A stretch of 33,096 bases of DNA from a virus. Within the stretch, counting starts at the first letter, position 1. Each line of letters starts with the position of its first letter. Of this stretch, positions 1-33,096 are shown in pieces. The notes below the pieces were generated by a model. That model saw nothing but the letters and a program-made list of their open reading frames with translations. It was not told where the DNA came from and searched no databases. The position numbers and the translations under genes were made by a program. Where the stretch lies: the IMG/VR virus record IMGVR_UViG_3300037963_001011, positions 1 to 33,096 of that record; one strand, 5' to 3'.

Positions 1-869
1 CTGAAGAAGAGCGTATCGCAGAGGAAGAACGACTAGCAGAAGAGAAGCGTTTAGAAGAAGAGCGTTTAGCTGAAGAGAAAAGACTTGCTGAAGAGAAGCG
101 TTTAGAAGAAGAACGTATTGCTGCAGAACTAAAAGCTAAAGAGGAAGCTGATGCTATTGCAGAGCTACAAGATTTAGACGTTGACTTATCACAAGAAAAA
201 GTAGAAGAATTTGTAGAAGTAGTTAAAGAGGTAGAAGAATTTGTAGAAACTATAATAGTAGAGGAAGAAATTATAGAGATACCTGAAGTCATTATACTTG
301 AGGTAGAGGAGGAAGAAATTGAAGAAGAGATTAATATTGTTGAGACCGAAGTTTTACCTGAGACTAAGCAGGAGATTTTGGATGAGCCAATACAGGAAAT
401 TATTGAGGAAAAACCTTTAGAAGAATTATCTGAAGAAGATATAGAAATAGTTCAAGAAGTAGTTGTACAGGCTATAGAAAATGTAGAAGAATTATCTGAA
501 GAAGAAATCGAAGTAGTTTCAGAGGTCTTACAGGTGGAGGTAGAAGATGTAGAAATCATTGCAGAGGCAGTTAAAACAGATGAAGTAGTTGCGGAAGCAG
601 TAGAGATATTTGTACAAAAAGCTGTAGAGAATGTTGATGTAGAGGACTATACACTTGCTGATGTTGTAACAGAGATACAGTACGAACAGTTTATAGAAAA
701 CCCAATAGAAATTTTTATTGACATAGAGAACATTACTGAAATAAACCTTACAAACATTGGTGATGATATGACACAAGACCAAAAGGAAAAAGCACAAGAA
801 GTTGTAGTCCCTGTTATTTTGACTAGAATAGCTACTATGGCAGCATTTGTCTTTAGGAAAACATTATGA
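1..869 (+). CDS. Glu-rich coiled-coil phage protein, 3' part
   Basis: The frame is open from base 3 to a TGA at 867-869, so 288 residues of a longer protein are visible; its start lies left of the window. The first ~45 residues are charged repeats built from units such as EERLAEEKRLEE, a classic long charged helix or coiled coil of TolA type. Residues ~60-220 stay extremely acidic, with recurring segments such as EELSEEDIE and EELSEEEIE. The last ~35 residues change character and end in a hydrophobic stretch (PVILTRIATMAAFVF) that could contact membrane or another subunit. The next gene starts inside its stop codon (ATGA), so the two are translationally coupled. I do not recognise a family. 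Its position before the lysis-type genes suggests a late gene, perhaps a stalk or fibre component, but that is inference. Confidence 0.75.
   Translation, partial: EEERIAEEERLAEEKRLEEERLAEEKRLAEEKRLEEERIAAELKAKEEADAIAELQDLDVDLSQEKVEEFVEVVKEVEEFVETIIVEEEIIEIPEVIILEVEEEEIEEEINIVETEVLPETKQEILDEPIQEIIEEKPLEELSEEDIEIVQEVVVQAIENVEELSEEEIEVVSEVLQVEVEDVEIIAEAVKTDEVVAEAVEIFVQKAVENVDVEDYTLADVVTEIQYEQFIENPIEIFIDIENITEINLTNIGDDMTQDQKEKAQEVVVPVILTRIATMAAFVFRKTL
3..137 (+). repeat. Degenerate in-frame repeats encoding charged heptads
   Basis: Units around GAAGAGCGTTTAGCT / GAAGAGAAGCGTTTA recur about six times and encode EERLAEE, EKRLEEE and similar segments. All variants keep the frame, so this is a coding repeat and not a CRISPR or intergenic array. 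Confidence 0.7.
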
Positions 870-1084
870 TTAAAAAGATTTGGAATTGGTTTATAGAAAT
901 AATAAAAGAAACATTAAACCTTTCGTGGACCTTAGTGGGTCTAGTGATTGCGACACTTACCTTGACAGGTTCGGCACAACAAATTACAGGTTTAGCTACA
1001 GTAATTACACTTGGTGTGTGGTTACTGACAATAGGATTTAGAAAAGAAAAACAAGATAAACAAAAAGGAAAGGTGAGCAAATAA
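866..1084 (+). CDS. Small two-helix membrane protein, holin-like
   Basis: This is a 72-residue protein whose ATG overlaps the upstream stop as ATGA. An amphipathic N-terminus (IKKIWNWFIEIIKE) is followed by two hydrophobic segments, about residues 20-38 and 40-58, separated by a short polar turn (GSAQQ). The tail is strongly basic (RKEKQDKQKGKVSK). Two helices with a short loop and a charged C-terminus is the usual layout of small class II holins, and the neighbours (DUF5675, r1t-like holin) support a lysis role. No conserved motif proves it, and any small inner-membrane protein would look similar. Confidence 0.65.
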   Translation: MIKKIWNWFIEIIKETLNLSWTLVGLVIATLTLTGSAQQITGLATVITLGVWLLTIGFRKEKQDKQKGKVSK

Positions 1085-1122
1085 TGGAATGTTGCGGTGG
1101 TGGATGTTGTGGGGGTAAGTAA
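1084..1122 (+). CDS. 12-residue Cys/Gly-rich peptide MECCGGGCCGGK
   Basis: The ATG shares its A with the TAA of the preceding gene (TAATG), and a purine-rich SD-like stretch (GGAAAGGTGAG) lies about 6-10 bases upstream. The encoded peptide is MECCGGGCCGGK, then TAA. Four of its twelve residues are cysteines, arranged CC-GGG-CC, and five are glycines. That layout could bind a soft metal, or iron-sulfur or arsenic-type ligands, or form disulfides. It could also be only a coupling device. The composition is far from the AT-rich background, which argues against chance. No family is recognised. Confidence 0.5.
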   Translation: MECCGGGCCGGK

Positions 1123-1151
1123 CTGTCACACATACACGAATGATAAAGGCA

Positions 1152-1169: not shown

Positions 1170-1190
1170 ATTGCAAGAATGGAGGTTTAG

Positions 1191-3867: not shown

Positions 3868-3895
3868 ATGATAGCAGGTTATTCCAAGTTGACAA
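3868..3895 (-). promoter_or_regulatory. Leftward promoter, extended -10 TGCTATCAT
   Basis: On the minus strand TTGTCA (3895-3890) is followed after 16 bases by TATCAT (3873-3868) with the extended TGC in front. The expected start, 6-8 bases further on, falls at 3862-3860, next to the ATG at 3858. The 14-base string CCTGCTATCATGAA recurs before the gene starting at 5155. Confidence 0.5.
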
Positions 3896-4943
3896 GGTAT
3901 TCAGCAGTAACACCTTTGTCAGGTTTAACAAATAGACAAAACTGTGAAGGTCTACCCATAGATGCTAGCTGTTCTTGTGCAAATGTATTGTAGCTTTCGG
4001 TACTACCATTACACCAAAATCTAATATCATTAATGTATTGTGTGTTAGGTGTGTGAAAGTGTCCTGCTACTGCGTAATCAAAGTCTTCCATAAGTCCTTG
4101 ACTTGCTAATGTTTTCCAACCCTGTATCTTTTTACCAAATCCATACCATGGAAACCCTGCGAATCCACGTACTTGGTCACCATGAAACATAAAAAATCTA
4201 GACTTCTTACCTAAATCAGCTACTGTATACCACGCTTTCTCACCTTTTTTGTACGCTAAATGAAACTTTAACCTCGGCTCATTAACAAATATTTGTTTAA
4301 GTATGTTACCTAACATAGCATCTGCATTTGTTTCAGGGTGCATGTCTTTACGACTTCTACCACCTAATGCACCATGATTACCTATAACCCAATGACACTC
4401 TACTTCATCAAAGTGTTGTAACAATCTATTAAAAAAACCATGCAAGATACGTGGTCCATCAACTGTAACCTGTGCGTATAAAGAACTATCTATTAAGTGT
4501 GCTTGTCCGGGAAATATTAATTCACCTTCTACTATGTCGCCTAATGCTAAGACAACACACTTCTTGACCGTATGACTAGCACGTTGTATGTCTGCTATAT
4601 CGCATATCTTATCTGCATATCTAAGCACACGTTCCTCTGCAACTGCAGTAGAATATGTTGGTGTAACCTTTGCTAGTTGTATATCACTTAATAAAGGAAC
4701 ACAAATCTCTTCACCTTTTGTTTTCTTTTTACTCTTGGTGGGTGGTTTCACAGGGCGTAAATCTAACTCGGCAATATTGGTTTCAATAGCTTCGTTCATA
4801 GCCTCAATCAAATCTAGTTTCTTGTCTTTCAACCTATCTATTTGCTTACGTTGTTTCTCAATTATCTTTTTAAGTTCATCAACTTTTTCACTTGTCGCCT
4901 CTGCGATTAAATCTACTAACTCGTCTTTACTCTTTTTGCCCAT
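3879..4943 (-). CDS. Calcineurin-like metallophosphoesterase with N-terminal coiled coil
   Basis: The protein has 354 residues. Residues 1-60 are a charged helix (DELKKIIEKQRKQIDRLKDK), and a Lys/Pro linker follows. From ~80 the metallophosphoesterase motifs appear in order: LLSDIQ (84-89, metal Asp87), LALGDIVEGE (132-141, Asp136), VIGNHG (186-191, Asn189 and His190), FHGD (253-256) and AGHFH (293-297). The first motif reads D-x-Q where many relatives, such as the Mre11/SbcD nucleases, have D-x-H, and the second has Glu at the usual distal Asp position. It could be a phosphodiesterase or a DNA nuclease; the substrate is unknown. Its 5' end overlaps the HTH gene by 28 bases, so the two are co-expressed. 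The ATG lies inside the upstream gene. Confidence 0.8.
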   Translation of the reverse strand: MGKKSKDELVDLIAEATSEKVDELKKIIEKQRKQIDRLKDKKLDLIEAMNEAIETNIAELDLRPVKPPTKSKKKTKGEEICVPLLSDIQLAKVTPTYSTAVAEERVLRYADKICDIADIQRASHTVKKCVVLALGDIVEGELIFPGQAHLIDSSLYAQVTVDGPRILHGFFNRLLQHFDEVECHWVIGNHGALGGRSRKDMHPETNADAMLGNILKQIFVNEPRLKFHLAYKKGEKAWYTVADLGKKSRFFMFHGDQVRGFAGFPWYGFGKKIQGWKTLASQGLMEDFDYAVAGHFHTPNTQYINDIRFWCNGSTESYNTFAQEQLASMGRPSQFCLFVKPDKGVTAEYLVNLE

Positions 4944-5155: not shown

Positions 5156-5161
5156 GTGTTC

Positions 5162-5230: not shown

Positions 5231-5263
5231 AGATAAATAAAAAACCCCCCCGCGAAAGAGACC

Positions 5264-5347: not shown

Positions 5348-7264
5348 TTATCTTTTGCGTATAGTCTTAGCAAATTCCTTAGCCTCGTCTATGTCTCGTA
5401 AGATAACAATGTCATGTTTATGACATAAGTCCTCACAATAGTCTTTTAATTCATCACCATACACGTAGTTACTTGTTTTACCGACATTGTAAGCTACTAC
5501 TTCCATGTCGCTAACAAGCATACGAGGTTTTGGTTGTGATGCTAACCATAGTATTGCAGGTACATCTACAAAGTTTTCACCATATCCACGAGAGTATATG
5601 TACGTATCATCATAGTTCTCAATGGTGCGTTGGTTTTTAGCAAACACTTCAATAACACCTTCAGGCATGTTATTGTTTCTAGCGTAAGTTTCACCAACAC
5701 CTGCATATCCTACTATTGATGAGGCAGGTAACAATGATATGACTTCCTCAATGTCTTGTGCATTGAAGTGCATACTACCACTACAATCTATGGCTACTGT
5801 ACCACCTTTGATACTTTGGCGTTTTCTAGCAAACACATGCTTGTCAGTAACCCACCTGTTAATGTACTTGGGTACTGCACCTACATCACTAGGTCTGTTT
5901 CTACGCACACGTAAAGCACCTGCTAAGTCTTTGGTAAGATTACCATTTAGAAATGTAGCATTTGCCCACCTGTGCTTACCTGCACTAACTTGTATGTCTA
6001 TGTCTTTGCTAGTAAGTTGTTCAACTGCATTGTCAATTTGAGACATGATATTGTCAGCTTGATAATGCTTAGGTATAAATGCATCACCTTCCATGTTTTC
6101 AATGGTTTTTGGTACAAGTTTACCATACTCATCAAAGCTACCTTCACACAAGGATTGATACAACGCACCAAGTTTCTTAACGTGCTTGTTATATTTAGCT
6201 AATCCTCTAGGTACAACTGTGTTGTAAGGTATAACTCTCCATTGATACCTATTCACAACATCAATTACTTCTCGTAGATTGAATAACCTTCTAAGTATTT
6301 CTGCATATTCCAATCCACCCATACCTGAGTGTAGAAATTCTAACACATCTACACAATGTATTGGTTGTCGTAGTACGCCTATACCATACTTGACATCTGT
6401 ATGATGAATTGTTTTCCATAACAACTCAGCTTCAGTTTCTGTCCACCTAGAAGTAAGAGGTTTTTCTAGGTACTTTCGCTTGATTGCAAAGTGTTTGTTG
6501 ATAAATTCATCTGTTGTGTTTTTATCACTGTCATCTTGTGCATTTTGCAAACATGCAATCAACGCATCTAAGTATTCAAGAAAGTTCATACTATCTCTAT
6601 ACATAGTAAGAGACATTATATGTCCAACTTGTTGTATTGGTGTAGTCTCATACTGTAACCAAGCATGTATTGATTGCATGATAATGTCATGACAAATGTA
6701 CTCTTTGCGATTTACTTTACGTGGAACATTACCACGACTTGTGTAATTCCAAGTCCAAGTACCTTGTTCTTTACGTTCCTGCATGTACTTATCGTGTTCT
6801 TTTCTAGCTTCTTTGTTAGCTAGATTGTACTCAGCACGATACCATCTATGCATAGCGTAAGCACGTTCCAAGTATTCTTTCTGTATGTTCTTTGTACCTT
6901 GAAACTTCGGTAAAGGAAACATCTCTTTGTACATAACATGACTACGAATAGTCCTAGCATGATTAACTCTAGTTGCATTAGCATCTACCTTTGGTATATT
7001 GTAATGAGAAATCTTTCTACGAGTTTCCTCATTACGTTTCTGTACTTTGTTAATCAATTTGTTGTAAGGCTCAAGGAACTCTATAAGTTCTGTTGTGCTA
7101 ATGATACTGCAATCACAATGGTCATCACCTATTGTAACTGCAGTAGCGTTCTTACGATTGATACTAGGTTTGTTCTGTCCTAAAGACACTTGATACTCTT
7201 GTTTGTCAAGTATCTCAGGGTACAACATGCCTTGTACTCTGCGTGATTTACTCATCTTTCGCAT
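5348..7264 (-). CDS. VWA-domain protein (CobT-like partner of the AAA+ ATPase)
   Basis: The protein has 638 residues. The first ~480 are largely helical, with no motif I can name. The C-terminal ~150 form a von Willebrand A domain: GGTVAIDCSGSM (488-498) holds the metal-binding DxSxS (Asp493, Ser495, Ser497), and RMLVSDMEVV (581-590) supplies the later Asp. This helical-region-plus-VWA layout beside a MoxR/CobS-like ATPase matches the AAA+/VWA pairs that remodel protein or metal complexes, such as CobS-CobT and MoxR-VWA; phage members are known but their job is not. The start is ATG 7264 or 7255, and both overlap the ATPase stop. A Ro60-like RNA-binding protein also has a C-terminal VWA, but no TROVE signature is evident. 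Confidence 0.75.
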   Translation of the reverse strand: MRKMSKSRRVQGMLYPEILDKQEYQVSLGQNKPSINRKNATAVTIGDDHCDCSIISTTELIEFLEPYNKLINKVQKRNEETRRKISHYNIPKVDANATRVNHARTIRSHVMYKEMFPLPKFQGTKNIQKEYLERAYAMHRWYRAEYNLANKEARKEHDKYMQERKEQGTWTWNYTSRGNVPRKVNRKEYICHDIIMQSIHAWLQYETTPIQQVGHIMSLTMYRDSMNFLEYLDALIACLQNAQDDSDKNTTDEFINKHFAIKRKYLEKPLTSRWTETEAELLWKTIHHTDVKYGIGVLRQPIHCVDVLEFLHSGMGGLEYAEILRRLFNLREVIDVVNRYQWRVIPYNTVVPRGLAKYNKHVKKLGALYQSLCEGSFDEYGKLVPKTIENMEGDAFIPKHYQADNIMSQIDNAVEQLTSKDIDIQVSAGKHRWANATFLNGNLTKDLAGALRVRRNRPSDVGAVPKYINRWVTDKHVFARKRQSIKGGTVAIDCSGSMHFNAQDIEEVISLLPASSIVGYAGVGETYARNNNMPEGVIEVFAKNQRTIENYDDTYIYSRGYGENFVDVPAILWLASQPKPRMLVSDMEVVAYNVGKTSNYVYGDELKDYCEDLCHKHDIVILRDIDEAKEFAKTIRKR

Positions 7265-7952
7265 TTGATTGTTCTAATGCATCAAGTATGTCATTGTATC
7301 TGTCTTGAAATACAACCTTTGCACTATCTTCTTCGCTCATGAACTTAGTCAATCTGTTGAACTCTGCCCATGAACGTATGCTTGTACGTCTATCACTATC
7401 TGTAATGAGAGACATGGCTTCACATACTTCACGATACTTCTTAGGTATCTTTTTCAATGCAGAAGGGTGTATCTTATCAATGTTAATCTTGATAGGAAAC
7501 CTATCTGCTAGTGCTTCAGGTAGTGTATCAGGTGTGCCGTTCATGGTTGCTACAACATTGAAGTCATCTTTAGGTTTAACAAAGTCTTGTTCTCTGTTAG
7601 GTAATGTCATACCTGCGAACTCTTTGTCATCTAAGATACTATACAAAAATGTAAGCACATCACTAGATGCGTGGTCAATCTCATTGACAACAAATCTAGC
7701 ACCCTTCAACCATGCATTGACAGCTGTACCATGTAGCCAAGACATACTACCATTATCATTTGGTATGAAATGTCCTCGCAATTCCATAGCACTTCCGTCT
7801 TCTGTTAGCGTAGTTGATACTACTTCCTGCTTTTCTTTTAGATTGTAGAGTGTTGCTTGGTATGACTTTCCCGTACCCGGAACGCCATAGAGTAACACTC
7901 TATCTGCATTGCCGATAACTTGTTCGGCTAATTCCCAACATGTTTTACTCAC
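7248..7952 (-). CDS. MoxR/CobS-like AAA+ ATPase
   Basis: The protein has 234 residues. The start is GTG at 7952, preceded by GCGAGGA. Walker A is GVPGTGKS (23-30), Walker B FVVNEID (87-93), sensor 1 is the Asn in VVATMNGT (Asn138), the arginine finger lies in EALADRF (Arg151), and a sensor-2 type Arg occurs in TSIRSW (Arg193). This is the compact MoxR/CobS architecture, with a short lid and no extra domains. It overlaps the VWA gene by 17 bases, so the two should form one complex in which the ATPase hexamer drives a VWA-bound client. The client in this phage is unknown; candidates are a host complex or a virion precursor. Confidence 0.85.
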   Translation of the reverse strand: MSKTCWELAEQVIGNADRVLLYGVPGTGKSYQATLYNLKEKQEVVSTTLTEDGSAMELRGHFIPNDNGSMSWLHGTAVNAWLKGARFVVNEIDHASSDVLTFLYSILDDKEFAGMTLPNREQDFVKPKDDFNVVATMNGTPDTLPEALADRFPIKINIDKIHPSALKKIPKKYREVCEAMSLITDSDRRTSIRSWAEFNRLTKFMSEEDSAKVVFQDRYNDILDALEQSNAKDE

Positions 7953-7975: not shown

Positions 7976-8440
7976 TTATTCTTCCTCTGCTTTGTTGAGG
8001 TAAGAGTTTATTTCATCTAGCATTTCCTTAGTTACTTCATCTAAGTCCATGCTGTCATAGTCTGTTGCTAGTGCATAAGCAATAGGTGTGTTAGGTAAAC
8101 TTTCAAATGTAGTCAATGGTATATCCACTTTGACATTTACTGTCTTTACCTTATCACCTGCACCTGTTTGGTCTAGCAGTACGCACTCCCATATAGTTCT
8201 CATATGTACTTCACAAGGCACACCTTCTTTGTGCATGTGTTTCATATACATTTTGAGATATGCAGGGAAACGTTTATCAACATCTACAAAGAATTGTTCT
8301 GTGAGTTGTTGATTGTAACTGTTCTCAATCGCTTGGTCGTTGAGAACTTTGAGAACATCTATTGTGATAGCAATACGTTTGCTATCTACCATAGTTAAGT
8401 CCTCGCCTTCTACGAACATGTCATCACTAAAGTTAGACAT
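7976..8440 (-). CDS. Hypothetical protein, 154 aa
   Basis: An ATG at 8440 with SD AAGGAAGG opens a 154-residue acidic protein. It begins MSNFSDDMFVEGEDLTMV and ends in a Glu-rich helix (EMLDEINSYLNKAEEE). The middle has mixed helix and strand, with a KMYMKHMHKEG segment. I recognise no domain. It lies 23 bases upstream of the ATPase gene and overlaps the winged-helix gene by 8 bases. Co-expression suggests it belongs to the AAA+/VWA unit, perhaps as client or adaptor, but nothing in the sequence proves that. Confidence 0.65.
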   Translation of the reverse strand: MSNFSDDMFVEGEDLTMVDSKRIAITIDVLKVLNDQAIENSYNQQLTEQFFVDVDKRFPAYLKMYMKHMHKEGVPCEVHMRTIWECVLLDQTGAGDKVKTVNVKVDIPLTTFESLPNTPIAYALATDYDSMDLDEVTKEMLDEINSYLNKAEEE

Positions 8441-9575: not shown

Positions 9576-10021
9576 TATTCCTCCTCTTGTGTGTTAGTTT
9601 GTAAGAAGTTCTCAATGTCGTTATGCATTTTCTCTGCAACGTCATCTTCTGCGAGAACTCTAGTTTGTACTAGGTCTTTACGTGTAACAACAATTCCATC
9701 TATGTCAAAATCATCATGTTGTATTCCATGATTATTGAATATTGAACTTGCTTTTTTCACGTTACCTTTGTTCAATTCATCTGCAATTTTCTCACCCATA
9801 TCACCAAATGAATTGAGTATGTCTGCTTGTATGAAGTTCCTACCTAGTTCAAGTGCTTTGGTTGTTGCCTCAGCAAATGACCTTGCTTTGATAGTTATCT
9901 CTTGTACAGGCGGCATCTTATAACCAATGGTTATGTGTGCTTGATATTCTTTTATCTTTCTAGGATTGGTAGTGCTTTCGTTTATTGCACCACCTTCACC
10001 TTGTGAGTTGCGTTCTCTCAC
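9575..10021 (-). CDS. Hypothetical protein, 148 aa
   Basis: The start is GTG at 10021 (GTGAGAGAACGC), after the SD GCGAGG. The N-terminal ~25 residues are polar and probably disordered. Then KIKEYQAHITIGYKMPPV and VQEITIKARSFAEATTKALEL look like a small alpha/beta domain, and an acidic, Gln/Glu-rich tail ends in TNTQEEE. It overlaps the zinc-protein gene upstream by 4 bases (ATGA type with a GTG). No family is recognised. Confidence 0.6.
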   Translation of the reverse strand: MRERNSQGEGGAINESTTNPRKIKEYQAHITIGYKMPPVQEITIKARSFAEATTKALELGRNFIQADILNSFGDMGEKIADELNKGNVKKASSIFNNHGIQHDDFDIDGIVVTRKDLVQTRVLAEDDVAEKMHNDIENFLQTNTQEEE

Positions 10022-10425
10022 AACATCACCTCGCTTTCTCTATCTTCTTCTGTTCTACAACAACCACAAATGACTTTGCGTTCAAAGTATTCGGGATAGT
10101 TGTTCTTCATTTCTTGGAAACATGAGCCACACATAGCATAGCCACCACTAATCTGTTGCCCTGCTTTTGCCTCACGTTTAACCTCATCAATGTCATCTAT
10201 CGTACAAGATAGATTGATTGGTTGAGTAGCATCAATACTAGAGTTACAAGCCATATCACATACCCATAAGTCATCAGGTATATCGCTATCTACTAGCTGT
10301 GATATGAACTCAAATCCTAGTTCTTGTGCTTGTTTTTTGTTTTCCTCATAGTGCATGTGTGCTTGTACTCTTGCAACTTGCCTATGTTTTATCGGATTAG
10401 GTATTACTAACCACGCTTCGTTCAC
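10018..10425 (-). CDS. Cys-rich zinc-binding protein, 135 aa
   Basis: The start is GTG at 10425 with SD GAGGAG. The first ~50 residues form a basic helical region (KHRQVARVQAHMHYEENKK). Cysteines then appear as C56-X3-C60, C74, C99-X2-C102 and C120-X-C122-C123. The late pair of knuckles (MCGSC and ICGCC) is typical of a zinc ribbon, and the earlier ones may form a second site. It overlaps both neighbours by 4 bases. Its role is unknown; zinc-knuckle proteins of this size in phages are usually host-takeover or nucleic-acid-binding factors. Confidence 0.65.
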   Translation of the reverse strand: MNEAWLVIPNPIKHRQVARVQAHMHYEENKKQAQELGFEFISQLVDSDIPDDLWVCDMACNSSIDATQPINLSCTIDDIDEVKREAKAGQQISGGYAMCGSCFQEMKNNYPEYFERKVICGCCRTEEDRESEVML

Positions 10426-17695: not shown

Positions 17696-18092
17696 AGTAG
17701 AAAAAAATCCGGTAGCAGGTGGTAGACCTGCATATGATGAAGCACCTGTACAAAACATACCTCGTGCTCCGGGTGACAGCACAGGTCAAAGTCAAGATTT
17801 ATTAAATCAACAACGTGGTGCACCTATGGCTAGAGAAGCAGAACTAGGAACTGATGTTAGTCAAACACAATCTGCTGCACCTATAAACTTACCTGATGCC
17901 TTTGGTCCCGGTGGTGGTAGCGTTCCTGTTAGCAGTAGCCAACCTGCTATAGGTCCTGCATTATCTATGTCTAATGGATTAACTAGAGATGATGTAGATT
18001 TATTGTTAGAAGAAATAAATGCTATTGTGCCAAGTTACGAAACAGCAGCATTAACTAGACGAGGACAAGTAGCTAGACAAGAGCCAAACTAA
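17676..18092 (+). CDS. Disordered Pro/Gln/Gly-rich protein, 138 aa
   Basis: The ATG at 17676 lies six bases after GGAGG, so I reject the upstream ATG at 17658. The N-terminus is basic (AKKRSRVEKNPVAGGRP). Residues 20-100 are rich in Pro, Gln, Gly and Ser with no predicted fold. One clear helix lies at ~103-120 (LTRDDVDLLLEEINAIV), followed by a short tail. Long disorder ending in one amphipathic helix resembles a scaffold or linker that docks by its C-terminus. That is inference from composition and position. It overlaps the preceding gene by 20 bases. Confidence 0.6.
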   Translation: MAKKRSRVEKNPVAGGRPAYDEAPVQNIPRAPGDSTGQSQDLLNQQRGAPMAREAELGTDVSQTQSAAPINLPDAFGPGGGSVPVSSSQPAIGPALSMSNGLTRDDVDLLLEEINAIVPSYETAALTRRGQVARQEPN

Positions 18093-24622: not shown

Positions 24623-25366
24623 ATGTCTTACAACTTCCATCACGATAATGTAATACCACATACAGAACCTGAAAAAGTTTATGAAGCTATATTAGAAATT
24701 ATTAAAGACTCAGCTTATGGTGGTGCTACATACGAAGAAGCATGGAATATGTTTGGTGCTATGGCGTGGGAATCATTTGCTGACGCAGATGGTATAGGTA
24801 GTGAAGGTTGGAACAAAGCAGCGTTTAATCCTAAAGCACATACATATGATGATGATGGTTTATTAGCTGTTGGTGTATTCCAAGTTAATGTAAATCATTT
24901 TCCTGACATGATAATGCGTAGCATGATTGATACAGGATATACAGATGAATTTAGTTTTAGTCCTACAGTTTTTACTGTGAAAAAAAATAATTGGAAAGCA
25001 GATGACCCTGATTTAGAAAGAAAGAAACAATTATTTGAAGCTGCAAGATTATGGTTAAAAATGCCTGAGAATGAATATGCTATATTGCAATGGGCATCAG
25101 ACCCAAATACATTTGACGCACAAGTTAAGATTGCTAAAGAAGCATTTAATGATAGAGAAAAAGCAGGTGTATTTGGTGGTGAAGCTTGGGATAGTTATAA
25201 GTATGGTCATATAGATAAAGGTCATAACGTAATAGAAAAAGAATATGGCTTTACTAGATTAGACCAACCATGGCTACACGGTGTAGCGACAGACACATTT
25301 GATATAGATAACACTACTGAAGTAAAAGAGAAATCAATACTAGATGGGATATACAATAAGTTCTAA
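24623..25366 (+). CDS. Lysozyme-like (transglycosylase-type) protein, 247 aa
   Basis: I choose ATG 24623, just after the previous stop; the frame is open further upstream but only through the neighbour's coding sequence. Residues 45-89 show a lysozyme-fold pattern: AMAWESF, with Glu50 as candidate catalytic acid; then NKAAFNPKAH; then GLLAVGVFQVN, the usual GxxxVGxFQxN block. The C-terminal half is helical, with LKMPENEYAILQWASDP, similar to the helical half of such domains. Within a run of large virion genes it would be the enzyme that opens the cell wall during DNA entry, as in T7-type ejection proteins. Key residues fit but the match is distant. Confidence 0.5.
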   Translation: MSYNFHHDNVIPHTEPEKVYEAILEIIKDSAYGGATYEEAWNMFGAMAWESFADADGIGSEGWNKAAFNPKAHTYDDDGLLAVGVFQVNVNHFPDMIMRSMIDTGYTDEFSFSPTVFTVKKNNWKADDPDLERKKQLFEAARLWLKMPENEYAILQWASDPNTFDAQVKIAKEAFNDREKAGVFGGEAWDSYKYGHIDKGHNVIEKEYGFTRLDQPWLHGVATDTFDIDNTTEVKEKSILDGIYNKF

Positions 25367-28300
25367 TGAATGAAAAAGAATTAAGAGATATATTAGAAAA
25401 GTTTTTTAATCACACATTAGGTGTGTCATATAAAAATCCTATGATGGTTTACGATACTAATTCGTTGTTATCAGTTGTAGGTAAAACAGTAGGTATTCCT
25501 AATGCACAACTTAAAACATTAAAGTTAATTATTGAGAAAGCACAAAAGACAGGCAGAATAAACGATAAGCTTGTTAAAGGTTTATACAAATCAATAGTAG
25601 AAACAGGTGGAGATTTGCAGTTATCTGCATTGATATTAGATAAATCTAAACCTACAGCAGAAAGATTATCTAGAATACTAGAACTTGTTTATGCACCTAG
25701 CTACAAAGGTTTGCATAGAAACATGGTAACTAATGGTCCTGCTACTAATTATGATTTAAATCAAACATTACAAGACTTAGACGTAACAGGTAGAACAAGA
25801 CGTATGCCTGATGGTCCTACAGGTTTTGTACCTGCTTATACAAACTTATTAGCAGCTATTGCGGCAATAGAAAAAGGGTTTATAGCTGCAGTACCATATC
25901 GTAAAGTTACAAATAACATAGGTGAAAAAGTAATTATAAACGAATCACAATCAGATTTATTTATTAAAAGTGCTGAAGCAGCAGCAGATTTTTATGATAT
26001 TAAAAAAGTAAATCCTAAAGGTGAAGTAGATAAATTTGAAATGACATTAGATAGATACAACGACATTACAAGAATATTAGAAGTTGTATTAGCTGATGCA
26101 GAACTAATAAAAAAATATGCATGGCAAGATTTATTAGACCCTGAAGTATTAGCAAAGCTTAATAATGAATTACAAGATGAAATAAATAAAATGAAAGCTG
26201 AAGTAAATAATAAACCTGTATTAGATGCTAAAGGTCAAGGAATGATTAATGCATTAAAAGAATGGAAAGCTACACAACCTGATTCATGGTTCGGAAATAA
26301 TCCTATAATAATTAATTCAGGGCAAATGGGTGTAGAAGAAGCAGCCTTAGAAAGACATAAGAAAAGCGGTTTAGATACAGGAGGTACTGCACCTGCAGGA
26401 TTTATTGCTAACCCTGTGAGTAATCCAAAAGTATTTCCACAAAAAGGAAAAGAATATGGTTTAAAACCTTTATATACATTAGATAAAAGTCCTGATGGTG
26501 TAACACCTATAGGTAACAAGATTGATTACAGATATCCTGATTCGTCATATGCATATGGATATATAATGGAAAATGCTAGTGATGATTTTAAAAATCATAT
26601 TAACAAATTAGCTGCTATGGGATTTGATGATGTAGCTTTAAAACTTGCTGAGTCTTTTATATATGAAAAACCTAGATTGAAAGAAGAAGGATTTGACAGA
26701 GGTTGGTCTATGAAAAAAGGAAAGCAAGCAGAGTTTGCTTTATCTAAACAAATAAACGTAGACGCAGCAGATTTAAATGTAATTATTATTAATAGTAAAA
26801 ACCCTGACGAAGTGTCACTTAAAACTGCTATGTATTCTTTGTATGGTGAATATAAATTACCTGCAAATTTATTAGGATTTTATTCAGAAAATCGTGATTA
26901 TGTTATCAAAAGTTATGCACCTGCAAATTTAGATTGGCGTGATGTTGCTGATGCGTTAAGAAAAAAATCTACTTCACAAAGACCTGATACCTATTGGGAA
27001 GCAGCAGCAAAAGAAAAGATAAAAGAAATAGCAAGAACTGTGTCAGATAAAGATTTATTTGTAAACACTTATACATTACAAGGTCAAGATGCAAAGAAAA
27101 ATACTTACGTTATTGATTTACAAAATTTTAAACACAATACATTAGCAGGAGCGTTAGAAGAATTTCAAGCAGAGTTACTTGGAAGAGGTATGGTGTTACA
27201 AAACATTAATGGTGTGCTTACTCTTGTTGATAAAAACACAGGTGCATCTCAACTGTTTGACACAGGTAAAAGTGGATATAAGATACACGTTACAGGTGAT
27301 ACAAGTGTTATTGGTGGATATTATAAAGACTTAACAGATAGAATTGTACAAGCGTTAGTAAGTCCCGAAGCTTATTATGAACAGTTAGCTAAACCACAGA
27401 TAATGAAAGAAAACATGAAAGGTGGTTCTGTACAACCTGATTACACTAAATCTCCTGTTGCTTTAAATGAATACAGCGTTGTTAATAATGAACCTATGGA
27501 AAAGGTTATGACTAAACAAGGAGAAGATGGAAGCTTTGTACCTGATTATAATAATCCAAATGTTGTGTCACAAGTAGATTTAATACGTGATGGTAAACAA
27601 AAAGGGTTTTTAATTAGAGAAGCTGACCTTCTTAAAAAATTAAATGTACCTACAGTAAAAGAAGCTATTAAGATATTAGAAACTAATCCTGAACTAAGAC
27701 TTACAAACTTTGACCAAGGTCAAGAAACTAAAGTAAAAATATCTAATTGGGAAAAATTAGAAGCATATAAGTTTGGTAAGACAGAAAGAATGAAAGATGG
27801 TAATTATAAACTTGTTACACCTAACCAAGGTTATATAGATAAATTTACTGAGTTAGTTGGTAATCCAACTGCTACATTTAAAAAAAGTAAAAAACTAAAT
27901 CCTTTAACAGGCTTGTGGGAAACAGGTAATGAAAAAATATATTTACCTGAAGGACAAATAGAATTTCTTATTAACCAAAGTAAAACACGTTATGATAAAT
28001 TTAAAAATAAAATAGAACCAAAACCATTTTGGTTATTAGAAGTAGGAGAAACAGTTAGTCCTGCTGCTAAAAAAGCAGAAGCTATTAATGAAGCACTACG
28101 TGCAATTGAACAATCACAATTACAATATGCTAGGTATTGGTCATATGGACAAGACCCTAAAGCTATAACACGTATAGGTAAAAATAATTATCCTGCAACA
28201 GTAGAAAATAATTTTTTTGTTAAAGGACCATTAGAACCTTTGTTTGTAGATTTATATCAATTCTTAACTTCATATGAATTTGGACCAAGAGATTTAAGTG

Positions 28301-31300
28301 TTGAAAGATTAATGGCTAACTTATCATCTGACGTATTTATGGCAGAGTCTTTACAAGAAATAGTTAATGCTTTACTTGCAGATGAACTTGGTTTAACTAA
28401 TGCTGTAAAACCTATAGATGCAAAGCAATTAGAAATAGCAAAGAAAAATAATTTCTTAGGTAAATTAACTATGTTTTATAAATTGTTAGGTCATCATAAT
28501 GCTGTTCTAAATGCTATAACACTTAACATTGCACAAGAACTTGCAAGTAGAGGATACGACATGCAAGGAAGCATGGAACAGGTACAACAATTTATGGAAG
28601 AAATAATTAGCTTAGATGATTTAAAAAATAACAAACAGCTAGAACAAATAATGAATCAAACATTAGGACGTCATCAAGAAGTATTAGCAAACAAAATATA
28701 TGAAACAATAAATTCTTTACACATGGCAGAAATAGAAATGCTTACTAAGTATCCCGATATAAAAGATGCGTACAATCAATTAAGAGCTATAGATAAAATA
28801 GAAGGTCAGTTTATGCCACCTTTACCACCTGACGTAGACCCTGAAATATTACAAGGTGCATTAATGGATAGAGATGGTGTAAACCCTAGGTTTCAAAATA
28901 AAAAACCAACTGACAATATGAATTTATTTAATGCAATGATGGATTCATTTCAAGGAATGACAGGTGCAGATGCTGCAGATTTGCTAGAGTTTTATGAAGG
29001 ATTGCAACAAACTTTTGAACAATGGTCTGAGGAATTAACTAAGTATGATAGAAACAGGGATAAATATAAATGGATAAAAGACTTTGCCACAATTGTTAAT
29101 GATATAGAAGGTGCATTTACAGAAGCAGAATCTAAAGGACGTAATCCTAGACAAATGTTTCCACAAGAAGAACAATTTGTTCTTGCAAAAATAGATGAGT
29201 TACAAAAACACTTAGATAAACCGGAAGCAGATGTATTTAAGAAAAGTGTTTTACCGGTAGTTCTTGATGAATTAAAAAGATTAGATAGCAAAACTTATGC
29301 AAAAGCAGACCTTACAGTTGCAGATACATTTTATGTTAATGTACTTTCAGAAGCACTTGGACAAAAGAAAATACATAAACGTCTAGGTATATTTACTGAC
29401 AATGCAATAGATGGATTTGCTGCTTTACAAAGAATTATTTATGATTGGTCAAGTTTTTATTTAGGTGAAAATTATTTACGAATAGATAATTTATTTGGTG
29501 CTGAAGATAGCGTAAATTACATGGGTAATGAAATAGAAAACTTTTCTGATGAATTATATAAATCAAGAATGATTACTGAAGAATTTGCATCATCATTACT
29601 ACCACACATTTTCAAAGATGGATTGGAAAATTTCTTTGCTTCGTCACCTACAGCATTACAAGCGTTAATGATGAATGATACAAATGTTAATCCTGCTGTA
29701 CAAGATAAATTTATTAAAGCATTTGTAGATGAGTATGGTGCAATTGTAATAAATAATGAAGCAATGATTAACAGTATGCAAACAGTTTTACCTTTATTAG
29801 CACAATCGTCATTTGTAGATAACGGTTCATTAAAATTATTGATAGACGAAGTATACAAACTAACAGACAAAGGTAAACCACCAACAGTAGATTTTGATAA
29901 TACTAAAAGTTTGAGAGAATATATAACAGAAGTGTCAGACCAATTGTTATCGGGTGGTCAAATTGAAGGTGTAGAAGCAATGGATATTGTTAAGACTTTA
30001 GAAAAGGTATTTCCACCTGATGACTTTCCTGAACTATATAGAGTTATGACAGATGACCCGTTTGCTTTAAATTACATGTTGTTTGTACTTGAAACAAATC
30101 TTAAAAGATTAGCTGTACGTCCTGAAAATATAGAAAAAATATTTAATACAGAAGTTTCTAAATTAGGAATAGGTGAAGAATTTAATTGGCAAGAGTTTAA
30201 AAACAAGATAGCAAAAGGTAATGTTTTTAAATTATTGACAGGCACAGGAGAAACATTTGATATACAACCTGAACGAGTAAACGAAATTAAAAATGTATCT
30301 AAAAAAAGATTGTCCGATATGGTTTTTGAATATAACAAACTTATGTCAGGCACAGGTGTTCAATTTAAATTAGTGTCTAATATTCCTAATAAGTGGGATA
30401 TAAAAGCACAACAAGGTAAAAACTTTAATCCATTTGTTGTAGCACCTTCTAAAGGAGCAGATGCTTTTTATCATATACAGTTAGTATTAACAGACCCAAC
30501 AAAATCATTTGCTGAAGTTATGACTAAAGAAGTAGCTATGGCTATAACTCATTTACTACAAGTAGAACAACCTACTAACTTTGTAAACAATACAGGATTA
30601 GCAGGTAACTATAGCAATAGTCTTTTACGTAACGGGTTTTTAAATTCATATTTATATGCAGATACTTTAGGTGAAGAAATAGGTATGGAAGCTCTTATGA
30701 AAGAATTAGAGCTTGAAATAGAATCTACTAAAGTTTTATTTCAAAAAATTAAAAAAGACACATTAAAGAACGCAGCTCCTGAAGATGTTAAGAAATTAGA
30801 AATTACATTTGACTATCTAGAAAGTGGTTTAGATGAAGCATACAAGTTAGCTAATGCTAGGGCAATAATGTACGGTAGGCAATTCGTTGCAGAAAAAGGA
30901 ACTAAAACTTTTTATGGATTAGATGATGCAGGTGCTTTTCCATTAGCTAAATTAAAAATACCAAAAGAATATATCTTAGGGGGTGCAACAAATGTGACTA
31001 ACTCTACATTGTTTACTAACTTTATTGCACCTATTCTTCTTAGAAATAAATCACTAGACATAGAAGATATGAAACAAGTACAAGATGTATTAAGCAAGAA
31101 AGGTGTCAATTTTGAAATAGCACAATACGTTGATGTGTTGCTAGATTTAACAGAACCAAAGCTTGGTAGAAAAACATTAGATAATGGATTGCAATTAGCT
31201 GATGAAATATACAATACAATATTTTTTGACAAAGAAAATGGGCTTATGAAACCTGCAGAAGTTACAAGCAAAGAGTTTAAAATATTACAAAATATAGATA

Positions 31301-33096
31301 AAGAATATTTCCTCTATCTAAAGCATAAGTTTGACCAAGGTATTGAGTTAAAAGATATTCCTACTAAACCGGGTGTGCCTGCAGATTATCATCAAAGAGT
31401 TCAAGAATTATTATCAGGAACTTACAACATATATGAAGGTACATTTGATGAGTTTAGAAGTAATGAGTTTACTAAAGATAAAAAAACTATAGGACAATGG
31501 TGGGATGATACATTAGAGAAATACAAGATTATGCAAGATAGATTTGTAACACCTGAACTAGGACCTGCAAACCCAACTAACTTTAAAGATTTAAGTGCAA
31601 TGTATTTGATGCAGTTTGCTAAAGATTTAGGTGATGGGTTTTTACAAGACTTATACAATCAAACAAATATAGATAGAACATATGCATTAGAAATGGACGA
31701 AATAACTTCTCATTTAAGAAAAGGAAATGGACTAGCAGATATTGCACAAATGTTTAACATACCTTTAACACCACAATTAGGTTCAGGTATTGGTAAAGAC
31801 TTAACAATACGTGGTCCTGTAGGTTGGCAAATAGTACAACCTAGGGGTGAAGCAACACCAATGGGTCCACCTAAAGGTCCAAGCGACTTAGTGTTGCGTG
31901 GTAAATTCTCTATGCTATATGATGATAGTAAACCTGCATTAGTTAAAGGTGCTAACTTTGGTGAAGGTGACCCATTTAGAAATGCATTTAAAGCACCACC
32001 ATTTAAAAAAGTTAAACAACCAAGAGACTTTACTGTGTTAAAAAATATAGTAGATGCAGCTAAAAATGTTAGATACAGTAAAGCTAAGTATCAATATAAT
32101 TTTGGTAGAGGTAAAGAACTTACATTTTATACAGGTGCGGGACCGCAATCATCTGTAGTTCCTTATGAAAAAGTAAGTCCATTTAAAAGATATTTTAGAA
32201 ATATAAGAACACTTACAGAGTTACCATACTTTTATAACAAGCATGCAGGTAAAGGTGGTCCGAGAGTATATGTTGGTTATTACCTAAGCCAACCTGTATA
32301 TGCATCAGATACAGACCCTAGAGTTATTAAGCAACCAAAGATGAAAGCAGGATTTATTCCTACAAAGCCGGGAGTTACATTAAACGCAGCAGAGTTTGAA
32401 GATTGGTATAGAACTACTAAATCAGCATACTTGAAACAAAATTTAGTGTACAGACCTGTACGTGCTTATGGCAAACTTAACGCAGCAGCTTTTGGTGCTG
32501 ATATGCTATATGCAGTAAATGCTTATAATAAAGATACTGCAGGTATGTCTTATGATGAATTTATAGAACATGCATATACGCAACCCGGACAAGAAACTAT
32601 ACACAAAATTTTTTATCCTATACAAAAAATAATGGAAGCACCATTTAAAACACGTGAAGATATACAGAATAAAAGATTAAAACTAGAACAAGATTTAAAA
32701 AATGGCGTTATAAATCAAGCTACATACAATACTAAAAGTGCTACATACGATACATTAGAGGGACAATACACAGGTGCTGTAAATATAGTTACAGCTGTTG
32801 GTAGATTGTTTGAAGGTTTTATGGAAGGTGGTCCTCGTAATATAGGTAGACAAGCAGAAGAAGCTAGACAGCAAGCAGAACTTATAGCAGAAAATTATAA
32901 AGCAGGTTCAGAAGAAGAATGGTTAGCAAATATACAAAATAGATACACAGACCTAGCAAAGACTAAACATTTAACTTATAATTATGGAGATGATTACTAT
33001 AGTCGTGGTAGAAGATTTATTAATAAACAAATGAGAAAAATGAAAATGTTTAATCGAGATAAGAATGAAAGATTTAATGACCCTGAATATATATTA
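25366..33096 (+). CDS. Giant virion-type protein, 2577+ aa, open at right edge
   Basis: The ATG shares a base with the previous stop (TAATG), and I read all 2577 codons to the window edge without finding a stop, so the true protein is longer. It starts MNEKELRDILEKFFNHTLG. It is mainly helical with many Lys, Asn and Gln residues. I see no membrane segments and no motif that defines an enzyme. I looked for single-subunit RNA polymerase motifs, because N4-like phages carry such giants, and saw none. The best reading is an internal or ejected virion protein, or a tape-measure-like component, encoded after the lysozyme-like gene. It is not listed by ORF callers that need a stop codon. The actual C-terminus lies outside. 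Confidence 0.75.
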   Translation, partial: MNEKELRDILEKFFNHTLGVSYKNPMMVYDTNSLLSVVGKTVGIPNAQLKTLKLIIEKAQKTGRINDKLVKGLYKSIVETGGDLQLSALILDKSKPTAERLSRILELVYAPSYKGLHRNMVTNGPATNYDLNQTLQDLDVTGRTRRMPDGPTGFVPAYTNLLAAIAAIEKGFIAAVPYRKVTNNIGEKVIINESQSDLFIKSAEAAADFYDIKKVNPKGEVDKFEMTLDRYNDITRILEVVLADAELIKKYAWQDLLDPEVLAKLNNELQDEINKMKAEVNNKPVLDAKGQGMINALKEWKATQPDSWFGNNPIIINSGQMGVEEAALERHKKSGLDTGGTAPAGFIANPVSNPKVFPQKGKEYGLKPLYTLDKSPDGVTPIGNKIDYRYPDSSYAYGYIMENASDDFKNHINKLAAMGFDDVALKLAESFIYEKPRLKEEGFDRGWSMKKGKQAEFALSKQINVDAADLNVIIINSKNPDEVSLKTAMYSLYGEYKLPANLLGFYSENRDYVIKSYAPANLDWRDVADALRKKSTSQRPDTYWEAAAKEKIKEIARTVSDKDLFVNTYTLQGQDAKKNTYVIDLQNFKHNTLAGALEEFQAELLGRGMVLQNINGVLTLVDKNTGASQLFDTGKSGYKIHVTGDTSVIGGYYKDLTDRIVQALVSPEAYYEQLAKPQIMKENMKGGSVQPDYTKSPVALNEYSVVNNEPMEKVMTKQGEDGSFVPDYNNPNVVSQVDLIRDGKQKGFLIREADLLKKLNVPTVKEAIKILETNPELRLTNFDQGQETKVKISNWEKLEAYKFGKTERMKDGNYKLVTPNQGYIDKFTELVGNPTATFKKSKKLNPLTGLWETGNEKIYLPEGQIEFLINQSKTRYDKFKNKIEPKPFWLLEVGETVSPAAKKAEAINEALRAIEQSQLQYARYWSYGQDPKAITRIGKNNYPATVENNFFVKGPLEPLFVDLYQFLTSYEFGPRDLSVERLMANLSSDVFMAESLQEIVNALLADELGLTNAVKPIDAKQLEIAKKNNFLGKLTMFYKLLGHHNAVLNAITLNIAQELASRGYDMQGSMEQVQQFMEEIISLDDLKNNKQLEQIMNQTLGRHQEVLANKIYETINSLHMAEIEMLTKYPDIKDAYNQLRAIDKIEGQFMPPLPPDVDPEILQGALMDRDGVNPRFQNKKPTDNMNLFNAMMDSFQGMTGADAADLLEFYEGLQQTFEQWSEELTKYDRNRDKYKWIKDFATIVNDIEGAFTEAESKGRNPRQMFPQEEQFVLAKIDELQKHLDKPEADVFKKSVLPVVLDELKRLDSKTYAKADLTVADTFYVNVLSEALGQKKIHKRLGIFTDNAIDGFAALQRIIYDWSSFYLGENYLRIDNLFGAEDSVNYMGNEIENFSDELYKSRMITEEFASSLLPHIFKDGLENFFASSPTALQALMMNDTNVNPAVQDKFIKAFVDEYGAIVINNEAMINSMQTVLPLLAQSSFVDNGSLKLLIDEVYKLTDKGKPPTVDFDNTKSLREYITEVSDQLLSGGQIEGVEAMDIVKTLEKVFPPDDFPELYRVMTDDPFALNYMLFVLETNLKRLAVRPENIEKIFNTEVSKLGIGEEFNWQEFKNKIAKGNVFKLLTGTGETFDIQPERVNEIKNVSKKRLSDMVFEYNKLMSGTGVQFKLVSNIPNKWDIKAQQGKNFNPFVVAPSKGADAFYHIQLVLTDPTKSFAEVMTKEVAMAITHLLQVEQPTNFVNNTGLAGNYSNSLLRNGFLNSYLYADTLGEEIGMEALMKELELEIESTKVLFQKIKKDTLKNAAPEDVKKLEITFDYLESGLDEAYKLANARAIMYGRQFVAEKGTKTFYGLDDAGAFPLAKLKIPKEYILGGATNVTNSTLFTNFIAPILLRNKSLDIEDMKQVQDVLSKKGVNFEIAQYVDVLLDLTEPKLGRKTLDNGLQLADEIYNTIFFDKENGLMKPAEVTSKEFKILQNIDKEYFLYLKHKFDQGIELKDIPTKPGVPADYHQRVQELLSGTYNIYEGTFDEFRSNEFTKDKKTIGQWWDDTLEKYKIMQDRFVTPELGPANPTNFKDLSAMYLMQFAKDLGDGFLQDLYNQTNIDRTYALEMDEITSHLRKGNGLADIAQMFNIPLTPQLGSGIGKDLTIRGPVGWQIVQPRGEATPMGPPKGPSDLVLRGKFSMLYDDSKPALVKGANFGEGDPFRNAFKAPPFKKVKQPRDFTVLKNIVDAAKNVRYSKAKYQYNFGRGKELTFYTGAGPQSSVVPYEKVSPFKRYFRNIRTLTELPYFYNKHAGKGGPRVYVGYYLSQPVYASDTDPRVIKQPKMKAGFIPTKPGVTLNAAEFEDWYRTTKSAYLKQNLVYRPVRAYGKLNAAAFGADMLYAVNAYNKDTAGMSYDEFIEHAYTQPGQETIHKIFYPIQKIMEAPFKTREDIQNKRLKLEQDLKNGVINQATYNTKSATYDTLEGQYTGAVNIVTAVGRLFEGFMEGGPRNIGRQAEEARQQAELIAENYKAGSEEEWLANIQNRYTDLAKTKHLTYNYGDDYYSRGRRFINKQMRKMKMFNRDKNERFNDPEYIL

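What the first reader, a model, noticed from the sequence alone, without database searches (positions are those of the whole stretch)
1..33096. GATC appears to be absent from the whole window
On reading every line I found no GATC, which is its own reverse complement. At about 34% G+C roughly a hundred would be expected by chance (rough base-composition estimate). Codon choice supports selection: Asp before a codon starting with C is written GAC (Asp-Pro as GACCC, Asp-Gln as GACCA), although GAT is the usual Asp codon elsewhere. This fits avoidance of a GATC-cutting restriction system in the host range.
Basis: partly seen in the sequence, partly recalled or inferred. Interest (0 to 1): 0.72.

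Follow-up and report, generated by a model that had tools for sequence, protein, structure and literature searches.

The report
Phage genome stripped of restriction sites
This is part of an uncultured phage genome that lacks every GATC, as do its close relatives, and that also lacks several other short sites, most likely to escape the DNA-cutting defence enzymes of its bacterial hosts.

Summary
In detail: GATC occurs 0 times in 33,096 bases against 73-106 expected, and Asp before C is GAC 61 of 61 times (elsewhere GAT 460, GAC 144). The window is most of a 34,642-base phage contig. GATC is one of several sites purged here: GCGC, GGCC and the non-palindromic CCAG/CTGG are also 0; CGCG and TCGA are scarce. 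In 31 related records (865,516 bases, several near-identical) GATC is 0 against 1,900 expected in coding sequence; no other 4-mer is zero in that pool. Of the best 80 related contigs 78 lack GATC; one exception looks chimeric, one is distant. A distant relative (L148) has normal GATC. The other purged sites (CATG, GGCC, GCGC, CCGG, CCGC, CCAG and variants) differ by lineage, change repeatedly on the terminase tree, and are removed partly by synonymous changes. Two records look like mosaics in which GGCC content follows ancestry; composition may contribute. Best reading: Type II restriction-site elimination, a known strategy, here unusually complete and multi-site. Neither enzymes nor host were identified. 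Mismatch repair (MutH) remains a rival for GATC alone. The CCAG specificity is unexplained. HTVC010P-type pelagiphages have normal GATC but no GCCC.

The parts
1..33096 (.). Stretch with no GATC (0 of 73-106 expected); also no CCAG, CTGG, GCGC or GGCC
5251..5254 (.). The only CGCG in the window
   Evidence: expected about 6
13827..15752 (+). Terminase large subunit, used to find the family
   Evidence: PHROG 38, E = 5e-63; 93 relatives in viral contigs, best 80 kept
15754..17487 (+). Conserved 577-aa protein next to the terminase, probably the portal by position
   Evidence: cluster present in 31 of 31 records; match in 32 of 32 records searched, one partial; no PHROG match at 1e-3 or Pfam match at 0.01; portal is inference
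18092..23257 (+). Giant (1,721 aa) probable virion protein
   Evidence: ORF; relatives in 29 of 31 records; virion role is inference from position
25366..33096 (+). Second giant protein (at least 2,577 aa, runs past the window end), probably a virion protein
   Evidence: ORF; 6 of 31 records, all in the window's clade with its sister G006; role is inference
5348..7264 (-). 638-aa protein with a DCSGSM stretch like a vWA/CobT-type protein, next to the MoxR-like ATPase
   Evidence: PHROG 33218, unknown function; no Pfam match; vWA reading is from the sequence and recall
7248..7952 (-). MoxR/AAA_5 ATPase
   Evidence: PF07728, E = 9e-18
3879..4943 (-). Calcineurin-like exonuclease; not known as sequence-specific (recall)
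   Evidence: PHROG 284, E = 3e-41; PF00149 below its cut-off
10018..10425 (-). Small Cys-rich protein found in 10 of 10 near-complete genomes; examined as a possible phage nuclease
   Evidence: no Pfam match better than 0.08; fold model without a match at E 0.001
7976..8440 (-). Conserved 154-aa protein found in 10 of 10 near-complete genomes, examined as a possible phage nuclease
   Evidence: no Pfam match better than 0.11; modest model (mean pLDDT 67) without a fold match at E 0.001

Best explanation
The phage belongs to a family of tailed phages that escape Type II restriction by having no target sites. Any mutation that makes a site recognised by an enzyme common in its hosts exposes the incoming genome to cutting and is lost; over time every site is replaced, partly by synonymous changes. 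GATC has been under such pressure in nearly the whole family. Other sites come and go as lineages meet hosts with different enzymes, and recombination between lineages probably moves purged and unpurged blocks around. Shown: total absence of GATC, selection at synonymous positions, family-wide GATC absence, lineage-specific other sites and their repeated change. Suggested: mosaic blocks. Inferred: that the agent is restriction, that the missing words are recognition sites of host enzymes, and that GATC is constant because its cutters are the most widespread in these hosts.
For: GATC 0 observed against 1,900 expected in the coding sequence of 31 records, 865,516 bases in all, 0 in each full record and at 31 of 31 piece junctions. 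No other 4-mer is zero in the coding pool; the next is GCGC, 68 of 253. 78 of 80 related contigs have zero GATC. Lineage-specific sets in coding sequence: CATG 0 in G011, G013, G017, G018, G020, G021, G023, G029, G032 (one outside ORFs in G021); CCGC 0 in G015, G016, G022, G032, of which the strict test flags G015 and G022; CATCC (GGATG) 0 in G031 and G026; CCAG 0 in G000, G003, G004 and 2-3 in G001, G002, G005. Minimum changes on the terminase tree: GGCC 8, CCAGC 5, GCGC 4, CATG 3. Purging seen directly: of 104 CCAG sites in the sister G006, 0 are kept in G000, while 9 control 4-mers are kept in 18-39% of cases; of 44 GGCC sites in G011, 0 are kept in G018 (AGCT 61 of 153 kept); of 13 CATG sites in G010, 0 are kept in G011 (GTAC 93 of 131). 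Both orientations of CCAG are lost, as expected for Type II. Contrast: 80 HTVC010P-type contigs from the same collection (33% G+C on average, the family 35%) have GATC 2,665 against 2,683 expected. Blocks: in G010 none of 34 GGCC lies in a 12.7-kb gap that is 89-99% like G023 and G018, which lack GGCC there; elsewhere the best match is G009 or G011.
Against: No host is known; the four close relatives found in binned genomes lie in bins of three unrelated groups, so no enzyme could be matched to any site. CCAG, CCAGA, CCAGC, CAGTC, CACTG and CATCG are non-palindromic and I recall no restriction enzyme for most of them. The null keeps codon use but not codon-pair or context bias: it also flags AAAAA and CCCCC in T7, and several of the family's words are depleted in unrelated phages too (CAGTC 1/15, CATCG 2/21 and CAGCTG 0/15 in HTVC010P; CCAGC 0/19 in phi38:1; AAGCTT 0/13 in T7 and 0/17 in HMO-2011; CGACG in P-SSP7 and HMO-2011), which may mean context bias or widely shared enzymes. 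Many records are near-identical or fragments, so record counts overstate independent evidence, and recombination means the terminase tree is not the history of whole genomes. The G010 block is weakened by composition: of 132 words tested CACG and CATG are as unevenly spread as GGCC, and CCCG, CGGC and CCCC are also scarce in the block; an assembly chimera is possible too. CCGG is in excess in the window (27 against 9), which the explanation does not predict by itself. Site elimination is otherwise a minority outcome (3.9% of pairs in one count and 7.5% of cases in another in PMC6286503, first part of the Discussion).
Confidence: 0.72

Rival explanations
1. GATC is lost because of methyl-directed mismatch repair: MutH nicks unmethylated GATC in phage DNA, or the phage gains from escaping repair. 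Other sites are a separate matter.
For: phiX174 has no GATC and this is discussed in terms of MutHLS (PMC5014478, passages); T7 keeps only 6 GATC (5 of 112 expected in coding). GATC is the only 4-mer lost family-wide, so it could have its own cause.
Against: It does not explain CCAG, GGCC, GCGC, CATG, CCGC. Phage HMO-2011 has 0 GATC in its first 50,000 bases (0 of 117 expected in coding) although its host, Candidatus Puniceispirillum marinum, is an alphaproteobacterium, a group that as far as I recall lacks MutH. Loss here is total where T7's is partial.
Confidence: 0.15
2. The phage itself makes nucleases that cut these sites in host DNA and keeps its own genome free of them in place of a methyltransferase.
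For: Fits total absence and the lack of a methyltransferase family in the 94 representative proteins scanned. Many conserved proteins have no known function.
Against: No site-specific nuclease family in 94 representative proteins by Pfam, PADLOC or NCBIfam, nor among the 25 of 38 PHROG families shown; the nuclease matches are a thermonuclease (SNase) type in one representative, a PHROG 'endonuclease' in one representative (perhaps the same protein; not checked) and the exonuclease PHROG. It would need several enzymes per genome, swapped between lineages. Two conserved unknown proteins were folded without any fold match, which decides nothing. Proteins over 1,500 aa and most under 100 aa were not in the scan.
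Confidence: 0.06
3. Mutational or codon-context bias, or an artefact of library preparation or assembly.
For: Some weaker depleted words occur in unrelated phages too, so part of the word lists may be context bias.
Against: All three reading frames avoid GATC; related phages differ completely in CCAG, GGCC and CATG; contigs of up to 44 kb from many samples could not be assembled if DNA had been cut at GATC; pelagiphage contigs in the same collection have normal GATC.
Confidence: 0.02
4. GATC is constant because it is attacked in both states: DpnII/MboI-type enzymes cut it unmethylated, DpnI-type (Type IIM) enzymes cut it methylated, so neither a methyltransferase nor growth in a methylating host can rescue a phage that keeps it. 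A refinement of the best explanation rather than an alternative.
For: Rusinov et al. report GATC at ratio below 1 in all 46 phages whose hosts encode the corresponding (Type IIM) enzymes (PMC6286503, passages). The relative L145 encodes an N6/N4-type methyltransferase and still has no GATC in 43,860 bases.
Against: No enzyme of either kind was seen; that paper attributes such avoidance mainly to ordinary Type II enzymes. The specificity of the L145 methyltransferase is unknown. Enzyme names are from recall.
Confidence: 0.2

Closest known systems
Restriction-site elimination in lytic dsDNA phages (Rusinov et al. 2018, PMC6286503; abstract, passages and first part of the Discussion seen)
   Same: Type II-like short sites missing on both strands; no integrase family among 94 scanned proteins
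   Different: There, elimination is reported for a minority of phage-site pairs; here one site is absent from nearly all sampled members of a family and each lineage adds its own set, including non-palindromic 4- and 5-mers with no enzyme that I recall
GATC scarcity in phage T7 and absence in phiX174 (PMC5014478, passages)
   Same: GATC strongly selected against
   Different: T7 keeps 6 GATC; here 0 over 865,516 bases of relatives, and other sites are lost too
Puniceispirillum phage HMO-2011 and relatives
   Same: HMO-2011 has no GATC in 50,000 of 55,282 bases; 44 of the 80 best related contigs have none
   Different: Not found as a relative by the terminase searches made; in that group GATC content varies from none to near normal
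GANTC depletion in some pelagiphages (PMC9516812, passages)
   Same: A methylation-related motif is depleted in some phage lineages and not in others
   Different: Different motif; there discussed with methylated GANTC in the SAR11 host

Membership tests
Phages using restriction-site elimination (site ratio below 0.1 with more than 15 expected, as in PMC6286503) | Observed/expected below 0.1 with enough expected sites | tested here: met
   GATC 0/73-106 and CCAG 0/113-121 in the window record; GCGC and GGCC are 0 but only 9-15 are expected
Phages using restriction-site elimination (site ratio below 0.1 with more than 15 expected, as in PMC6286503) | Absence caused by selection, visible at synonymous positions | tested here: met
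Phages using restriction-site elimination (site ratio below 0.1 with more than 15 expected, as in PMC6286503) | Host encodes a cognate Type II enzyme | not testable with these tools
   host unknown; relatives sit in bins of three unrelated groups
Phages using restriction-site elimination (site ratio below 0.1 with more than 15 expected, as in PMC6286503) | Lytic (non-temperate) lifestyle | tested here: inconclusive
   no integrase family among 94 representative proteins, but absence of a match is weak
Phages using restriction-site elimination (site ratio below 0.1 with more than 15 expected, as in PMC6286503) | Non-palindromic sites lost in both orientations (against strand-biased Type III avoidance) | tested here: met
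   CCAG 0 and CTGG 0
Methyltransferase-protected phages | Phage-encoded DNA methyltransferase | tested here: not met
   no Pfam methyltransferase family in 94 representative proteins of 31 records; one exists in the relative L145, which still has no GATC
MutH-driven GATC loss (enterobacteriophages) | Dam/MutH-bearing host | not testable with these tools
   host unknown
MutH-driven GATC loss (enterobacteriophages) | Only GATC affected | tested here: not met
   several other sites purged

The most novel reading that the evidence does not exclude
The missing words of this family are a readable, modular record of host restriction: one constant word (GATC) and a swappable set, carried on recombining blocks, so that the last host regime of each genome block can be read from what it lacks. 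Among the words are non-palindromic specificities (CCAG in the window's clade; CCAGA and CCAGC separately in others; CAGTC/CACTG) that point to widespread restriction enzymes not yet described.
Probability: 0.32. Interest if true: 0.75.

Novelty: new variant of a known kind. Interest (0 to 1): 0.55.

Why it matters
If right, sites missing from uncultured phage genomes tell which cutting enzymes their unknown hosts carry, perhaps block by block, without culturing either. It gives a way to predict restriction specificities in uncultured microbes, including ones with no described enzyme, and a natural series of related phages that gained and lost avoidance of the same site.

Tried and rejected
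Artefact of assembly or library: rejected (three-frame codon evidence; normal GATC in pelagiphage contigs of the same collection).

Named relatives: megablast of window bases 1-25,000 against 50,697 phage records gave no match; the terminase finds 208 records, the 20 listed at 26-29% identity; two other proteins find none; the capsid protein of a relative finds 24 records, the 12 listed at 27-30%, by name mostly phages of Mycobacterium and Propionibacterium. This does not settle the host.

Host: the one genome scan found 20 loci, four of them close (51-61% identity), in bins of Actinomycetota (two), Gammaproteobacteria and Rhodobacteraceae. Searching 42, 292 and 293 genomes of those orders found, besides the same bins, 0, 2 and 8 genomes with weak hits (E 3e-11 to 3e-4), and a second partial match (E 1e-22) in the Gammaproteobacteria bin; none was followed. 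I treat the bins as unreliable. A paper search for one sample number gave nothing.

Exception L029 (65% identical terminase, 7 GATC): its GATC lie at 297-551 and 3744-3997 only; bases 552-3743, which hold the family genes, have none (8 expected), and the contig has a duplicated gene at one side, so I read it as chimeric. That is a judgement. L080 (53% G+C, 46% identity) is too distant to belong. L148 (51% identity) is a distant relative with GATC 89 against 61 expected in 14,980 bases and is counted as an exception.

Phage-encoded nuclease: family scans and two fold predictions gave nothing usable.

Gap test in G010: my first controls (AGCT, GTAC, TGCA, CCAG evenly spread; CCGC with a 9.2-kb gap) were mostly commoner words. 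Testing 132 words with 3,000 permutations each put GGCC among the three most uneven, together with CACG and CATG, with CCCG, CGGC and CCCC also uneven. I therefore lowered the novel reading from 0.35 to 0.32.

Rows dropped: one search kept the best 80 of 93 relatives; the two comparison families are the best 80 of at least 600 each. Of 32 records with handles I analysed 30 plus the window's record (G019 and G024 left out, 12-13 kb each); the tree uses 62 of 80 contig loci, four MAG loci and the window; of 96 representative proteins 94 were scanned, two probably spurious ORFs of the window dropped, and proteins over 1,500 aa left out beforehand; the CCAG context table covers 17 of 31 records; Fitch counts leave tips with few expected sites undecided, up to 42 of 67 for CCGG.
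Full report
What the window is. The window is bases 1-33,096 of a 34,642-base virus record. It encodes a terminase large subunit (13827-15752; PHROG 38, E = 5e-63), a conserved neighbour that is probably the portal, two giant proteins (1,721 and at least 2,577 aa), a MoxR-type ATPase, a calcineurin-like exonuclease and many unknown proteins; no tRNA was found. No close named phage was found. It is a tailed phage of an unknown bacterium.

The observation. GATC is absent: 0 against 106 (base composition), 89 (Markov) or 73-74 (synonymous codon shuffle, coding part of the record). The rest of the record also has none. Asp before C is GAC 61 of 61; before other codons GAT 460 and GAC 144. The two other ways of making GATC across codons are also avoided. 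In 31 records pooled Asp before C is GAC 1,560 of 1,560.

GATC is not alone. In the window CCAG, CTGG, GCGC and GGCC are also 0, CGCG 1, TCGA 5. With a Bonferroni limit the record has nine depleted words in coding sequence: CCAG 0/117, GATC 0/74, TCGA 4/34, GCGC 0/12, GGCC 0/11, CGCG 0/11, CAGTC 0/20, CACTG 2/21, GAGCAA 1/17. The 5- and 6-mers are the least certain: the same procedure flags AAAAA and CCCCC in T7, and CAGTC in the unrelated HTVC010P.

The family. The terminase finds 93 related viral contigs, of which the best 80 were kept; 78 of these 80 have no GATC. The exceptions are L029, whose GATC lie only outside the family genes, and L080, a distant 53% G+C contig. In 31 records read whole or nearly so (865,516 bases; several near-identical) GATC is 0 in each record and at 31 of 31 piece junctions, and 0 against 1,900 expected in coding sequence; it is the only 4-mer with zero in that pool. 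Of four close relatives in binned bacterial genomes three have none in the stretches held (L145 43,860 bases, L146 20,496, L147 11,984), and L148, the most distant at 51% identity, has 89 against 61 expected. So absence is a property of the family in the narrow sense, not of every relative.

Controls. The same counting on 80 HTVC010P-type pelagiphage contigs (33% G+C on average against 35% in the family) gives 2,665 against 2,683 expected, with none of 80 free of GATC; on 80 HMO-2011-type contigs (42% G+C) it gives 482 against 2,332, with 44 of 80 free. Both sets are the best 80 of at least 600. T7 has 6 GATC, HTVC010P 131, P-SSP7 132 in 44,970 bases, phi38:1 74 in 50,000, HMO-2011 none in 50,000. 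Complete loss is therefore neither general in the collection nor unique to this family; what is unusual is that it is nearly fixed.

Lineage-specific sites. Other words are lost in some lineages and normal in others: CATG in nine records, CCGC in four (two by the strict test), CATCC in two, GCGC, GGCC and CCGG in many, and 6-base palindromes such as AAGCTT, CAATTG and CAGCTG in some. The window's clade lost CCAG nearly or wholly in every context (whole records: G000, G003, G004 0; G001 3, G002 2, G005 4), while its sister G006 has 128, in coding sequence 41, 26, 27 and 24 followed by A, C, G and T. Of 17 records tabulated, G012 and G031 avoid CCAGA but not CCAGC, several avoid both while keeping CCAGG and CCAGT, and G006 and G028 avoid none, so these behave as separate specificities. 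The window's clade, against most others, has CCGG in excess (27 against 9 in the window); at 4 of 18 aligned CCGG sites the sister has CCAG, so only part of the excess can come from escape out of CCAG.

Changes and purging. On the terminase tree (67 tips) the minimum numbers of changes between avoided and present are GATC 1, CATG 3, GGCC 8, GCGC 4, CCAGC 5, CCAGA 4; tips with few expected sites were left undecided, and a gene tree is not the history of a recombining genome. Aligned genes show the purge: of 104 CCAG sites in G006 none survives in G000, 45 of them with one difference in the word and unchanged amino acids; nine control words survive in 18-39%. G011 to G018: 0 of 44 GGCC kept. G010 to G011: 0 of 13 CATG kept.

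Possible mosaics. G010 has 34 GGCC, none between 21,078 and 33,759 (permutation p = 6e-5 for so long a gap). That block is 89-99% like G023 and G018, which lack GGCC over the matching stretch, while elsewhere the best match is G009 (identical where it overlaps, so not independent) or G011, which have GGCC. G023 has its five GGCC in the last 4.3 kb, the end of which is closest to GGCC-bearing relatives. Against this: of 132 words tested in G010, CACG and CATG are as unevenly spread as GGCC, and CCCG, CGGC and CCCC are also scarce in the block, so composition contributes; and an assembly chimera cannot be excluded for either record. I hold the mosaic reading as likely, not shown.

Mechanism. The simplest reading is site elimination against Type II restriction: short sites, both strands, synonymous purging, lineage-specific sets, no methyltransferase family in 94 representative proteins. 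The literature supports the general strategy and its near-restriction to Type II sites (PMC6286503; passages, abstract and first part of the Discussion). Missing from the chain: the host and any enzyme. Mismatch repair could explain GATC alone (PMC5014478, passages). A phage nuclease was looked for and not found. Why GATC is constant is open; one possibility is that it is cut both unmethylated and methylated by different common enzymes. The relative L145 encodes an N6/N4-type methyltransferase of unknown specificity and still has no GATC.

Novelty. Site avoidance is long known. Near-fixed total loss of one site across a family, combined with a swappable set and with non-palindromic words of unknown enzymes, is a variant I did not find described: searches for 'restriction site avoidance' with 'mosaic' and 'phage' gave 0 papers, 'GATC' with 'HMO-2011' 0, 'GATC' with 'restriction site avoidance' and 'phage' 1 (listing only), 'palindrome avoidance' with 'restriction-modification' and 'phage genomes' 3, and 'GATC sites' with related terms 126, of which 15 were listed. 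The library holds only open-licence papers, and I looked into three of them (PMC6286503, PMC9516812, PMC5014478).

Noticed in passing
L264-L343 (HTVC010P-type pelagiphage contigs): GCCC/GGGC occurs 0 times against 601 expected and GGCC 0 against 238 in 80 contigs, GCGC 21 against 345: a non-palindromic 4-mer wholly absent from a pelagiphage group with normal GATC.
   Followed up: no
L182 and L184-L263 (HMO-2011 and relatives): HMO-2011 has no GATC in 50,000 bases and, in coding sequence, no GAGCT, CCAGG/CCTGG, CGCTC, CGACG or CCGAG; 44 of 80 related contigs have no GATC, the rest range up to 0.85 of expectation.
   Followed up: partly
L145 / L170-L172, L167:1441-2199: Relative in an over-long contig: its methyltransferase gene occurs twice, 43,860 bases apart, as if a circular or redundant 43.9-kb genome was read past its start; no such gene was seen in the 31 records.
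   Followed up: partly
L148: Distant relative with GATC in slight excess (89 against 61) that instead lacks GATGC/GCATC (0/22), CCAGC (0/14), CTCAG (0/14) and AGCCT (0/13).
   Followed up: partly
L161 (contig of an Ignavibacteria bin): Unrelated stretch of 48% G+C with GATC 0/57, GGCC 0/51, CCGG 4/67 and GAGTC 0/13.
   Followed up: no
L151 (contig of a Phycisphaeraceae bin): ACGT 0 against 34 expected, the only zero among 12 words counted there.
   Followed up: no
window 1-33096: CCGG is three-fold in excess (27 against 9) in the window and raised in its clade, but zero or near zero in most other contigs of the family.
   Followed up: partly
window 5348-7952, - strand: MoxR-type ATPase beside a probable vWA protein, both found in 10 of 10 near-complete genomes; role in the phage unknown.
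   Followed up: no
window 3-292, + strand: Low-complexity EEERLAEEKRL-like repeat at the start of a 288-aa open-ended protein.
   Followed up: no
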